IMG/VR virus record: IMGVR_UViG_3300044911_000835
Span: 1 to 64,000 of that record
Length of the DNA stretch: 64,000 bases
Strand: one strand, 5' to 3'
Origin: a virus
The notes under the pieces were generated by a model. The model ran no database searches. It saw only the letters and a program-made list of their open reading frames with translations, and had not been told where the DNA came from. Made by a program: the position numbers and the translations under genes. The number at the start of each line of letters is the position of its first letter. The first letter of the stretch is position 1. Positions 8,174 to 12,075 of the stretch are shown in pieces.

Positions 8174-8267
8174 AATACTAAGTCTAGGCGTAGCTCAGCC
8201 AGGCCAGAGTCCTTGCTTTGGAAGCAAGTTGTCGTAGGTTCGAATCCTACCGCCTAGACTTAGTATT
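8174..8267 (+). repeat. 17-bp inverted repeat extending the tRNA-Pro acceptor
   Basis: AATACTAAGTCTAGGCG (8174-8190) and CGCCTAGACTTAGTATT (8251-8267) are perfect complements; the inner 7 bp are the tRNA-Pro acceptor. Confidence 0.9.
8184..8258 (+). tRNA. tRNA-Pro(TGG), no encoded CCA
   Basis: Acceptor CTAGGCG/CGCCTAG, loop TTTGGAA, canonical T-arm. After the discriminator A the genome reads CTT, not CCA, and the leader and trailer pair for 10 more bp. Maturation must trim a double-stranded extension and add CCA. Confidence 0.9.
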
Positions 8268-8282
8268 TTGAAAGGAAATAAA

Positions 8283-8462
8283 ATGAATCGTCAAGCTATT
8301 ATTAAACTTCTTCAATCAAACCTATCAGATGAAGATGTTCTAGAAATTCTAGAAGATATTATCTGTAAAAAACAGAATAAGTACTTTAATACAGATATGT
8401 ATAGACCACTATACCAACCATGGATTACTCCAGCCTATAAAGTTGGAGAGACCAGTGTCTAA
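8283..8462 (+). CDS. Hypothetical protein
   Basis: 59 residues; ATG 8283 follows AAAGGA. Not recognised. First of three overlapping small genes. Confidence 0.55.
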   Translation: MNRQAIIKLLQSNLSDEDVLEILEDIICKKQNKYFNTDMYRPLYQPWITPAYKVGETSV

Positions 8463-8691
8463 AGGTTCTAAACAACGTCCTTGTCTAGTATCGGATTCGC
8501 AAATGCAATCAAATTGGGATAAAATCTTTAGTAAGTTTTACAAGGTTTATGTATGGCCCGATGGCAGCTGGATTGGTGAAGATGACCAGAAAGAGCTAGA
8601 AGAAGCAATGAATGAGTCAGATGACTTCTACATAGAGGAATTATCTGAAATTGAATATAATGACTTAGTTGAAGGAAGATTGATTCTATGA
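8455..8691 (+). CDS. Hypothetical protein, GTG start
   Basis: 78 residues, acidic C-terminal half. GTG 8455 is placed 5 nt after GGAGAG and overlaps the previous stop. Not recognised. Confidence 0.5.
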   Translation: MSKGSKQRPCLVSDSQMQSNWDKIFSKFYKVYVWPDGSWIGEDDQKELEEAMNESDDFYIEELSEIEYNDLVEGRLIL

Positions 8692-8882
8692 CTACGGATA
8701 CTTGGCATCCATGTTATAATGGAGCGCTTCCTAGTATTAATTCTTGTTGGATTCGCAAACTAGATAAGTACTGTTTGTCTATAATAGACAACAGTAGCCA
8801 TAAATATATACTACAATGTGGTGATGGTTCAAAAGTAGAAGTTACTAGAGACGACTTTATAAAGTCATTTTACCCTACATGA
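8688..8882 (+). CDS. Hypothetical protein
   Basis: 64 residues. Its central part (W-I-R-K-L-D-K-Y-C-L...KVEVTRDDF) looks like a small beta domain. ATGA overlap with the preceding gene. Not recognised. Confidence 0.55.
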   Translation: MTTDTWHPCYNGALPSINSCWIRKLDKYCLSIIDNSSHKYILQCGDGSKVEVTRDDFIKSFYPT

Positions 8883-8891
8883 GGAAAGATT

Positions 8892-9011
8892 ATGAGAAAT
8901 AAATTTGTTGTACATATGGTTGCACGAAAAAGTGGGCCTCATGGCAAAAGTAAAAAAGCTATGAGGCGTGCAGAGAAAGTCAAATTTAATGCGTCGGTAG
9001 CTCAATGGTAG
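8892..9011 (+). CDS. 39-residue basic protein ending inside tRNA-Lys
   Basis: A strongly basic product (VARKSGPHGKSKKAMRRAEK) with a good GAGGAAAG site. Its stop TAG lies 21 nt inside tRNA-Lys, so the same bases serve both genes. Possibly nucleic-acid binding; not recognised. Confidence 0.5.
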   Translation: MRNKFVVHMVARKSGPHGKSKKAMRRAEKVKFNASVAQW

Positions 9012-9066
9012 AAGCAAGGGACTTTTAATCCCGAGGTTGTGAGTTCAAGTCTCATCCGACGTACCA
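8991..9066 (+). tRNA. tRNA-Lys(TTT)
   Basis: Acceptor GCGTCGG/CCGACGT, loop CTTTTAA, encoded CCA. Its final ACCA is also the start of the 19-bp inverted repeat at 9063. Confidence 0.95.
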
Positions 9067-9137
9067 TATTAAAGAACTCTAAATGTGAGACCCTTAACTT
9101 AGCCTGGTAGCTAAGCACTAGAGTTCTTTAATATGGT
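9063..9137 (+). ncRNA. 75-nt hairpin RNA with perfect 19-bp terminal stem
   Basis: ACCATATTAAAGAACTCTA (9063-9081) pairs fully with 9119-9137. An internal loop precedes an apical hairpin CTTAGC CTGGTA GCTAAG. No T tract follows, so it is not a terminator. Its first four bases are the tRNA-Lys ACCA, so tRNA and hairpin compete for them. Confidence 0.6.
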
Positions 9138-9249
9138 AAAATCAATTAATTACATAGTAAAACATAAGTTTTACTTTATCTTTAGAAGTGTTGAAATGAT
9201 TACCTGTATATTTATTATATCAGGAGTTATTCGACATTGGTAGTATAAT

Positions 9250-9332
9250 GCGGGAGTGGTGGAACTGGTATACACAAGGGACTTAAAATCCCTCGCTTCG
9301 GCATGAGGGTTCGACTCCCTTCTCCCGTACCA
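9250..9332 (+). tRNA. tRNA-Leu(TAA)
   Basis: Acceptor GCGGGAG/CTCCCGT, loop CTTAAAA, long variable arm, encoded CCA. A TATAAT lies at 9243-9248, too close to act as its own -10. Confidence 0.95.
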
Positions 9333-9338
9333 AATAAT

Positions 9339-9412
9339 GAGAGCATGACCGATAGGCTAGGTGCTGGTCTGCAAAACCAGTTAGGTGAGTTCAATTCTCA
9401 CTGCTCTTTCCA
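9339..9412 (+). tRNA. tRNA-Cys(GCA)
   Basis: Acceptor GAGAGCA/TGCTCTT, loop CTGCAAA, discriminator T, encoded CCA. Confidence 0.95.
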
Positions 9413-9422
9413 AGGATTAAAC

Positions 9423-10632: not shown

Positions 10633-10633
10633 A

Positions 10634-10722
10634 GGAAGATTGTCTAACCTGGGATGTTAGCCCTGTCTTGAAAACAGGTGGAGCCGAGAGGCCAAGAGTT
10701 CGATTCTGCTAGTCTTCCGCCA
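10634..10722 (+). tRNA. tRNA-Ser(TGA), weak T-stem
   Basis: Acceptor GGAAGAT/GTCTTCC, loop CTTGAAA, long variable arm, encoded CCA. The T-stem (AAGAG / CTGCT) has two apparent mismatches around a normal TTCGATT loop, so it may be less stable. Confidence 0.85.
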
Positions 10723-10744
10723 TCAAATTTAAATAGGAGAAATA

Positions 10745-10960
10745 ATGACTCAGAAATACCTTGATGCAATTAATTTTATAGCAAATGAAGCACCAGATGT
10801 AGAGCTAGGTGCTGGGGGAGTAATTAGATGGGCTGAGCCTATTTGTGAACTTCTAACCTTTATTTATGATAAAGACTATGATGAGGTTACAGAAGATCTA
10901 TACGAGGCTATTAAAGAGGCTCAAGATATAGATGACGAGGATGAAGAAGAAGATTTTTAA
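10745..10960 (+). CDS. Acidic hypothetical protein
   Basis: 71 residues ending in a run of acidic residues (DIDDEDEEEDF). Not recognised. Confidence 0.55.
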   Translation: MTQKYLDAINFIANEAPDVELGAGGVIRWAEPICELLTFIYDKDYDEVTEDLYEAIKEAQDIDDEDEEEDF

Positions 10961-10962
10961 GC

Positions 10963-10991
10963 TTGTTTTTTGATGTTGGATAGCGTATAAT
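10963..10991 (+). promoter_or_regulatory. Sigma70-type promoter
   Basis: TTGTTT (10963-10968), 17 bp, TATAAT (10986-10991), starting right after the stop codon of the preceding gene. Confidence 0.8.
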
Positions 10992-11015
10992 GTTTCTTTC
11001 ACTGGAGATATTAAT

Positions 11016-11150
11016 ATGTTTATTTTAGATCAGATTCATGCGCGTGAGTTTTCAACCGAGTTCATTGAACTTATGGATAATGCTTATTTTGAGCTATTCA
11101 AGGATACGTTCAATGCGGATGCTTTGCTAACTCACTTCTACTTTACTTAA
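11016..11150 (+). CDS. 44-residue hypothetical protein
   Basis: MFILDQIHAREFSTEFIELM..., Phe-rich. It has its own promoter and GGAG site, supporting translation. Not recognised. Confidence 0.5.
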   Translation: MFILDQIHAREFSTEFIELMDNAYFELFKDTFNADALLTHFYFT

Positions 11151-11162
11151 GGAGCACCTACT

Positions 11163-11489
11163 ATGACCGTTATTAATACTTTTTATGTAGTTAAAAGTAT
11201 GTCCCCTACAAGAGTAGTAGAATACTTAGCTACAGATTATAATTCCGGTGGTTATTTCTATTGGACAGGTGTATTTAATAATAGTACTAAGTTTACTGAT
11301 AAAGCTAAACTTCCTAACCTTAAAAATACTTCTTATTTAGCTACTAACTCTGATGTAGAGTATTTAGAAGTGACTACTAATATTATTAGTAAATTTACTT
11401 TTGAAGACTTAAAAGCAAAAGAACTTGCTGAGAAAATAGCATCTCTGGAAGCTGAGTTAAAAGAACTTCGAAATTCTGTACTTGTTTGA
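11163..11489 (+). CDS. Hypothetical protein with C-terminal coiled coil
   Basis: 108 residues: a Ser/Thr/Tyr-rich beta-like part, then a short coiled coil (ELAEKIASLEAELKELRN). AAGGAGC precedes the ATG. Not recognised. Confidence 0.6.
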   Translation: MTVINTFYVVKSMSPTRVVEYLATDYNSGGYFYWTGVFNNSTKFTDKAKLPNLKNTSYLATNSDVEYLEVTTNIISKFTFEDLKAKELAEKIASLEAELKELRNSVLV

Positions 11490-11510
11490 AGATGTAAAAC
11501 GATTTATAAT
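11482..11510 (+). promoter_or_regulatory. Sigma70-type promoter driving an ncRNA/tRNA unit
   Basis: TTGTTT (11482-11487, inside the preceding gene's end), 17 bp, TATAAT (11505-11510). There is no gene for 930 nt downstream; it appears to transcribe structured RNA and tRNA-Tyr. Confidence 0.8.
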
Positions 11511-11519
11511 ATTATTTCT

Positions 11520-11960
11520 GAAATGGAAAAGACCTCACGATGTAGAGACCAGTGTGAGAATGTGAGCTTATAGTGGGTGATCTGGTACGCACACTATGTT
11601 TTTCAGAATAAAAAAGAGTGCCACACGATTCTAGTGAACTTGGAAATTTGCTAGAAAGTGCAAATTGGCGAAAAAATACTTGTGCATGTGTAGCGACATA
11701 AGTATTCTCAATTCAAGCGCACTAAGCAGCTATGCTGATGAAAATAGTACTGGTATGTAATACGAGTCCAAGCTCTGATTGCATTACTGGTGGCCGTTGA
11801 CTACCTATTTAATGAGTCAGCCCTTTAGCGACGTTTTGGGGTTATAAACTTCGCAGCCGCCCTGAGCTTAAGAAGGAAACTGTTCATCTAACAGGTATAA
11901 TTGATGACATAGAAGAAATGGGAAATCTAAAAACAGGTACAAGCCCTGGATTGATTAACG
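11520..11960 (+). ncRNA. Non-coding structured RNA tract
   Basis: About 440 nt without a credible ORF directly downstream of a strong promoter. Visible helices include AATTTGC/GCAAATT near 11646, the AATACTT/AAGTATT hairpin near 11676, GTAAT/ATTAC near 11757, TGACT/AGTCA with GGC/GCC near 11790, and GCGA-GTTT/AAAC-TCGC near 11828. Could be one ornate RNA (GOLLD/ROOL-like) or several. Confidence 0.5.
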
Positions 11961-12075
11961 TAGTATTCTGTGTGGAGCGTTTGATGCTATGGTGTGTGCA
12001 TCGGTGGACTGTAAATCCATCCCCTCTGGGTAAACATTCTTGGTTCAAATCCAAGACGCTCCACAGAGAATACTA
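11961..12075 (+). repeat. 20-bp inverted repeat extending the tRNA-Tyr acceptor
   Basis: TAGTATTCTGTGTGGAGCGT (11961-11980) pairs with 12056-12075 with one G-G mismatch; the inner 7 bp are the tRNA-Tyr acceptor stem. Confidence 0.9.
11974..12063 (+). tRNA. tRNA-Tyr(GTA), no encoded CCA
   Basis: Acceptor GGAGCGT/ACGCTCC, loop CTGTAAA, long variable arm. After discriminator A the genome reads CAG. Leader and trailer extend the acceptor helix by about 13 bp, as in tRNA-Pro. Confidence 0.9.

What the first reader, a model, noticed from the sequence alone, without database searches (positions are those of the whole stretch)
8174..12075. The only two CCA-less tRNAs sit in 17-20 bp extended acceptor stems
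All other 24 tRNAs encode CCA. tRNA-Pro (8184) and tRNA-Tyr (11974) do not, and both have leader and trailer that extend the acceptor helix by 10 and 13 bp. Fully paired ends normally hinder RNase P, so maturation should follow another route (for example RNase III then CCA addition), or the RNAs may serve as tRNA-shaped stems rather than tRNAs.
Basis: partly seen in the sequence, partly recalled or inferred. Interest (0 to 1): 0.72.

Follow-up and report, generated by a model that had tools for sequence, protein, structure and literature searches.

The report
Phage tRNAs inside long terminal helices
Two tRNA genes (Pro and Tyr) of an uncultured T5-like phage lack the usual CCA end and sit at the tip of a 19-20 bp double-stranded helix, which proves to be one case of a wider habit of these phages to close tRNAs, tmRNA and other small RNAs with long helices that probably steer how each RNA is cut from its transcript.

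Summary
tRNA-Pro (8184) and tRNA-Tyr (11974) are the only two of 26 tRNAs without an encoded CCA. Leader and trailer extend the acceptor helix by 12 pairs (Pro) and 12 of 13 (Tyr). Both look like real tRNAs: intact cloverleaves, and the only Pro and Tyr tRNAs of a set covering all 20 amino acids. A closely similar tRNA-Tyr in a relative has CCA and no extension.

The feature is not confined to these two. The window's 20-kb tRNA region holds 13 long-stem hairpins (0.6 expected by shuffling); 24 relatives' regions hold 73 (about 7.5 expected). In 19 loci, 25 of 339 tRNAs are followed by a stem of at least 13 Watson-Crick pairs anchored at their CCA (shuffled: 0). Extended acceptors recur on tRNA-His (two phages), tRNA-Asn, and the permuted tmRNA joint, where compensatory changes are seen. 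Phage T5's annotated 'stable RNAs with unknown functions' share the architecture.

Best reading: selected processing or end-protecting helices, probably opened by host RNase III, then trimmed, with CCA added by the host enzyme. The cleavage step is inferred, not shown; conservation of the Pro and Tyr helices themselves could not be tested.

The parts
8098..8171 (+). upstream tRNA-Ile(GAU); its CCA (8169-8171) abuts the Pro helix directly
8172..8183 (+). leader strand of tRNA-Pro, 5' arm of the acceptor extension (AGAATACTAAGT)
8184..8258 (+). tRNA-Pro(UGG) body to A73, no encoded CCA; Rfam 62.5 bits
8258..8269 (+). trailer strand of tRNA-Pro, 3' arm (A73 then CTTAGTATTTT)
11961..11973 (+). leader strand of tRNA-Tyr, 5' arm of the extension
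11974..12063 (+). tRNA-Tyr(GUA) body to A73, long variable arm, no encoded CCA; Rfam 25.2 bits (below 29)
12063..12075 (+). trailer strand of tRNA-Tyr, 3' arm
9062..9138 (+). 20-bp perfect hairpin whose 5' arm contains the CCA of tRNA-Lys; 37-nt loop
7624..7694 (+). hairpin between tRNA-Arg(UCU), whose CCA starts the stem, and tRNA-Arg(CCU)
12091..12212 (+). stem-closed RNA (19 bp perfect), 3' arm ends on the first base of tRNA-Leu(UAG)
18035..18129 (+). stem-closed RNA (16 bp perfect), 3' arm runs into the first five bases of tRNA-His; same layout as T5 RNAIII
13160..13267 (+). stem-closed RNA after the tmRNA
3475..3619 (+). stem-closed RNA
4086..4277 (+). stem-closed RNA
4641..4801 (+). stem-closed RNA (13 bp) ending 2 nt before the CAU tRNA
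15619..15788 (+). tRNA-like RNA: T-arm and 7-bp acceptor extended by 14 bp, no CCA, no normal anticodon arm
16427..16508 (+). stem-closed hairpin RNA
12880..13112 (+). permuted tmRNA; acceptor hairpin without CCA and with a 9-nt joint, i.e. without the extended joint seen in relatives

Best explanation
tRNA-Pro and tRNA-Tyr are genuine phage tRNAs transcribed inside a long terminal helix made by their own leader and trailer. This is one instance of a building rule of T5-like tRNA regions: RNAs lying between neighbouring tRNAs (small stable RNAs, the joint of the permuted tmRNA, occasionally a tRNA) are closed by a 16-24 bp helix that starts at the upstream tRNA's CCA and/or ends at the downstream tRNA's 5' end. 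Most likely mechanism: the helix blocks direct RNase P and 3'-exonuclease attack and offers a double-stranded cleavage site; a cut by host RNase III separates the upstream tRNA, the enclosed RNA and the downstream RNA; RNase P and RNase Z or exonucleases remove the short stubs; the host CCA-adding enzyme supplies the CCA that the gene does not encode. Shown: the helices, their non-chance frequency, their recurrence and covariation in relatives, and intact tRNA bodies. Inferred: RNase III, the order of steps, CCA addition, and that Pro and Tyr are charged.
For: Helices real and not chance. Long stems enriched only in the tRNA region: 13 vs 0.6, rest of window 1 vs 1.3; relatives 16 vs 1.3 and 57 vs 6.2. 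CCA-anchored stems 25 of 339 vs 0.0 in shuffles. tRNAs inside such helices recur: His in L120 and L123, Asn in L127. Compensatory changes at the tmRNA joint of eight phages and between the two tRNA-His extensions. Stem kept while the loop changes in hairpins before tRNA-Val of L026 and L027. T5's annotated stable RNAs share the closing helix. Pro and Tyr are needed to complete a 20-amino-acid set. Extended acceptor pairing inhibits RNase P (PMC9433436).
Against: No RNA data exist here. No relative with the same extended tRNA-Pro or tRNA-Tyr was found, so their own helices show no covariation; the closest tRNA-Tyr is ordinary. RNase III is host-supplied by assumption (none in 13 phage records). 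RNase P can unwind short extensions, so it might suffice. tRNA-Tyr scores below the Rfam cut-off and tRNA-Pro has A37 where most relatives have G37. The set of tmRNA joints used for pair counts was partly chosen from stems already found.
Confidence: 0.5

Rival explanations
1. The helix is the end product. Like T5's tRNA-like stable RNAs, these two RNAs accumulate with the extended stem, resist nucleases, and act as decoys or ligands (for example for host tRNA-cleaving defence nucleases) rather than in translation.
For: T5 annotates tRNA-like stable RNAs of unknown function in the same region; the window has other tRNA-like RNAs with long stems and no CCA.
Against: Pro and Tyr keep complete cloverleaves and anticodons and are the only tRNAs for these amino acids in a full set; the other tRNA-like RNAs lack normal anticodon arms.
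Confidence: 0.2
2. The helix only slows or orders processing: host RNase P unwinds it and cleaves normally, giving directional processing of the polycistronic transcript; 3' exonucleases and the CCA-adding enzyme finish the end. No RNase III is needed.
For: E. coli RNase P unwinds short leader-RCCA pairing, 18 of 87 E. coli precursors have the same G(-2)U(-1), and leader structure can set processing order (PMC9433436).
Against: Tested extensions there are short; here twelve pairs must open. Covarying 12-16 bp helices are longer than needed for a mild delay.
Confidence: 0.2
3. The inverted repeats act at the DNA level, for example as ends of small mobile cassettes or recombination sites into which tRNAs were captured.
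For: Inverted repeats bracket varied contents; Pro leader and Tyr trailer share the 11-mer AGAATACTAAG, unique in the window.
Against: Arms differ between modules but stay complementary, which RNA pairing explains and mobile-element ends do not; no associated transposase or integrase was identified among the proteins examined.
Confidence: 0.05
4. Chance pairing around two decaying tRNA genes.
For: tRNA-Tyr scores below the Rfam cut-off; tRNA-Pro has A37.
Against: 0 of 200 shuffles fold as well; 13 stems vs 0.6 expected; only five of 398 tRNAs show it, within regions rich in the same architecture.
Confidence: 0.03

Closest known systems
Stable RNAs of the phage T5 tRNA region (RNAI, RNAIII, RNAIV, RNA2H, tRNA-like RNA1/RNA2/RNA3, RNAX; record AY543070)
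   Same: Same genome region and phage group; RNAIII, RNAIV and RNA2H fold with long closing helices, and RNAIII's helix runs into the 5' end of tRNA-His exactly as window 18035-18129 does.
   Different: In T5 no tRNA is enclosed this way; T5 tRNA-Pro and tRNA-Tyr have CCA and no extension. Sequence homology to the T5 RNAs was not shown.
CCA-less tRNAs of phage T4 matured by RNase BN and the CCA-adding enzyme (from my own knowledge; not found in the paper library)
   Same: Phage tRNAs without encoded CCA that need 3' trimming and CCA addition by the host.
   Different: No long leader-trailer helix is known to me there.
RNase III processing stems of bacterial rRNA operons (own knowledge)
   Same: A long helix formed by the flanks of a stable RNA, cut to release it.
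   Different: Here the enclosed RNA is a tRNA or small RNA, the helix is continuous with the acceptor stem, and cleavage is not shown.
Permuted tmRNA precursor (RF04321; PMC11915505)
   Same: In several relatives the acceptor stem is extended by 12-16 bp through the intervening segment, like Pro and Tyr.
   Different: Gene order is permuted; CCA is usually encoded there; the window's own tmRNA lacks the extension.
Bacterial Y RNA YrlA (RF02553), a tRNA mimic partnered with Ro60
   Same: tRNA-like fold joined to a long helix; this phage encodes Ro60 and a YrlA-like RNA nearby.
   Different: In YrlA-like RNAs the T-arm precedes the D-arm and the outer helix is on the anticodon side; Pro and Tyr have normal order.

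Membership tests
canonical tRNA | cloverleaf with D, anticodon, T and 7-bp acceptor stems and correct anticodon | tested here: met
   ARAGORN calls both; Rfam tRNA 62.5 bits for Pro, 25.2 for Tyr (cut-off 29); 7 of 7 acceptor pairs
canonical tRNA | mature CCA end and aminoacylation | not testable with these tools
   CCA not encoded; needs RNA work
T5-type stable RNAs | located in the tRNA region and closed by a long terminal helix | tested here: met
T5-type stable RNAs | sequence homology to a T5 stable RNA | tested here: inconclusive
   no Rfam family for them matched at the cut-offs used; no dedicated profile built
T5-type stable RNAs | accumulates as a stable RNA | not testable with these tools
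   no RNA data
RNase III processing stem | near-perfect helix of about 20 bp bracketing the RNA | tested here: met
   19-20 bp helices
RNase III processing stem | cleaved by RNase III in vivo or in vitro | not testable with these tools
   none; no phage RNase III in 13 records
Y RNA / YrlA | permuted order T-arm, acceptor, D-arm with the long helix at the other end | tested here: not met
   Pro and Tyr have normal order; the permuted order is seen at 5238-5347

The most novel reading that the evidence does not exclude
T5-like phages use a distinct tRNA-processing grammar: long helices anchored on tRNA CCA ends and on tRNA 5' ends sequester RNA ends until a double-strand-specific cut, letting the phage protect or time the release of its tRNAs, tmRNA and stable RNAs, and letting any RNA, even a tRNA without its own CCA, be slotted in as cargo.
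Probability: 0.35. Interest if true: 0.75.

Novelty: new variant of a known kind. Interest (0 to 1): 0.6.

Why it matters
T5's stable RNAs are annotated as of unknown function, and I know of no stated common rule for them. The CCA-anchored closing helix offers one, predicts where such RNAs lie in uncultured phages, and links them to tRNA and tmRNA maturation. It also gives a direct, cheap test (T5 infection with and without RNase III) of how phages mature dozens of RNAs from one transcript and whether they hide RNA ends from host nucleases.

Tried and rejected
Close relatives of this region were sought with the Ro60 protein (none) and the RNaseH-like protein (only about 52% identical). The 93-98% identical contigs show no tRNAs, i.e. 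do not reach the tRNA region, so covariation of the Pro and Tyr helices themselves could not be tested. blastn of the two loci in cultured phages matches tRNA bodies only, covering at most 65% and 42% of the queries. Considered and rejected: intrinsic terminator (AU-rich stems, no proper U-run), Y RNA membership (wrong arm order), group I intron in a tRNA at 15619-15788 (insert too short), phage RNase III or CCA-adding enzyme in this record (the record is incomplete). The 11-mer shared by Pro leader and Tyr trailer may mean common origin, but my rough chance estimate is about 1 in several hundred and it was noticed after the fact, so nothing is built on it. The hairpin lists (13 pairs with G-U allowed) contain chance hits; the version with a null is used. 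In one search the label CCA for window tRNA-Tyr is a false positive of a loose text rule (match inside GCTCCACAG). The joint-finder failed on several tmRNA loci. Literature searches for T5 stable-RNA processing found nothing usable.
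Full report
1. What the window is. It is the first 64 kb of a 77-kb IMG/VR virus record. Its DNA polymerase is about 45% identical to those of T5-like phages and it carries a tail fibre J protein. Bases 2-18.4 kb are a tRNA region with 23 ARAGORN tRNAs, three more that ARAGORN misses (Gly 3144, CAU about 4804, Ser 10634), a permuted tmRNA (RF04321, 78 bits), a Ro60/TROVE protein and a YrlA-like RNA below the Rfam threshold. The host is unknown.

2. Observation check. tRNA-Pro 8184-8258 and tRNA-Tyr 11974-12063 continue A-C-U-U and A-C-A-G where all 24 others have N-C-C-A. Leader and trailer extend the acceptor helix: Pro by 12 pairs (11 Watson-Crick, 1 G-U), Tyr by 12 of 13 with a G.G mismatch. 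Fold z-scores are -5.4 and -7.4. In 398 tRNAs from 26 phage loci the extension is 0-4 pairs except in five: window Pro, window Tyr, His in L123 and L120 (two mismatches in the latter), and Asn in L127. Four of the five lack an encoded CCA; in L123 His the CCA lies inside the helix.

3. It is not only these two. A search for stems of at least 14 Watson-Crick pairs around a 20-260 nt loop gives 13 in window 1-20 kb against 0.6 in dinucleotide shuffles, and 1 against about 1.3 in the other 44 kb. Of the 13, eight lie between genes and enclose neither Pro nor Tyr. Four relatives' tRNA regions give 16 vs 1.3 and twenty more give 57 vs 6.2. Many begin exactly at the CCA of a tRNA and end in UGG(U), often with an arm like ACCAUAUUUAAGCACACUA / UAGUGUGCUUAAAUAUGGU. 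Anchored at the discriminator base, 25 of 339 tRNAs in 19 loci have such a stem of at least 13 Watson-Crick pairs, against 0.0 in shuffles (this count includes the Pro helix after tRNA-Ile and the His helix of L123). Others end at the 5' end of the next tRNA, for example 12091-12212 before tRNA-Leu and 18035-18129 reaching into tRNA-His.

4. Signs of selection at the RNA level. At the joint of the permuted tmRNA in eight phages, positions 73-86 are paired in 7-8 of 8 sequences apart from position 74, and positions 77-85 use up to four different pair types. A caveat: part of this set was chosen from stems already found, and the joint was not located in all tmRNA loci. The two tRNA-His extensions differ at five pairs, four of them on both sides, yet stay paired. 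Hairpins before tRNA-Val in L026 and L027 keep the stem while the loop differs. For Pro and Tyr themselves no relative with the same gene and extension was found. The closely similar tRNA-Tyr in L120 has CCA and no extension and is instead followed by a CCA-anchored hairpin, so the window's Tyr extension is probably derived and its own conservation is untested.

5. Comparison with T5. The T5 record annotates RNAI, RNAIII, RNAIV, RNA2H, RNAX and tRNA-like RNA1-3 in its tRNA region, nearly all as stable RNAs with unknown functions. RNAIII, RNAIV and RNA2H fold with long closing helices, and the RNAIII helix runs into the first bases of tRNA-His, the layout seen at window 18035-18200. T5's own tRNA-Pro and tRNA-Tyr are ordinary. 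I therefore read the window's modules as T5-type stable RNAs by architecture and the two tRNAs as tRNAs placed in such a slot. Sequence homology to the T5 RNAs was not demonstrated.

6. Mechanism. Pairing of the leader with the 3' RCCA slows E. coli RNase P, with a threshold of two pairs, though the enzyme unwinds such short extensions (PMC9433436). Twelve pairs should be a strong block (inference). A 19-20 bp helix stacked on the T stem is a plausible RNase III substrate (general knowledge). One cut would separate tRNA-Ile, tRNA-Pro and the reading frame that starts at 8283 (inference). CCA must be added after transcription if the tRNAs are used. No phage RNase III was found in 13 records and no CCA-adding enzyme in this one, although G040 and G041 have a PolyA_pol-family protein; host enzymes are therefore assumed, and the records are incomplete. 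An end-protecting or processing-ordering role is also compatible with the data.

7. Verdict. The RNase III step and the production of charged tRNA are unproven. The 'not tRNAs' reading is unlikely for Pro and Tyr but fits neighbouring tRNA-like RNAs.

Noticed in passing
window 5238-7067; L026 3670-6154: A Ro60/TROVE protein gene preceded by a YrlA-like permuted tRNA mimic in two T5-like phages; in L026 the RNA has an 18-bp closing stem.
   Followed up: partly
window 12880-13112: Phage-encoded permuted tmRNA without encoded CCA and with a 9-nt joint; permuted tmRNAs are found in most relatives scanned.
   Followed up: partly
window 15612-16530: A roughly 900-nt non-coding structured region that starts with a T-arm-bearing tRNA-like domain closed by a 22-bp stem; layout resembles T5 RNAX.
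   Followed up: partly
L024 5708-6134: A GOLLD RNA (171 bits, gathering 150) in the tRNA region of a relative.
   Followed up: no
window 3755-3835: A tRNA-like RNA with T-arm and a 9-bp acceptor helix, no CCA and no recognisable anticodon arm.
   Followed up: no
window 18124-18200 and tRNA-His of L026, L027, T5: These tRNA-His genes have C73 but U, not G, at -1, so the usual G-1 identity base is not encoded.
   Followed up: no
window 8184-8258: tRNA-Pro(UGG) has A37 where most relatives have G37; two CCA-bearing relatives (L026, L126) also have A37.
   Followed up: no
L113 13820-14005, L115 9250-9435, L116 14593-14780, L123 6530-6714: A conserved roughly 186-nt stem-closed RNA, in three of four directly after a tRNA (Pro or Leu), with a CCCUUAGCGGGG hairpin; no Rfam match at gathering threshold.
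   Followed up: no
G040 58977-59333, G041 35188-35538: Two large phages related by gene content encode a PolyA_pol / CCA-adding-type nucleotidyltransferase; one of them (G041) has the CCA-less, extended tRNA-Asn.
   Followed up: no
window about 2830-2890, 3620-3680, 3840-3880, 7780-7840, 9790-9840: A repeated promoter-like element (such as TTGAACTTGTTTTGATAGCTTAAACACTGTAAAATATCTTTTCTGAAATCGAAAAAGGAA) before small genes of the tRNA region.
   Followed up: no
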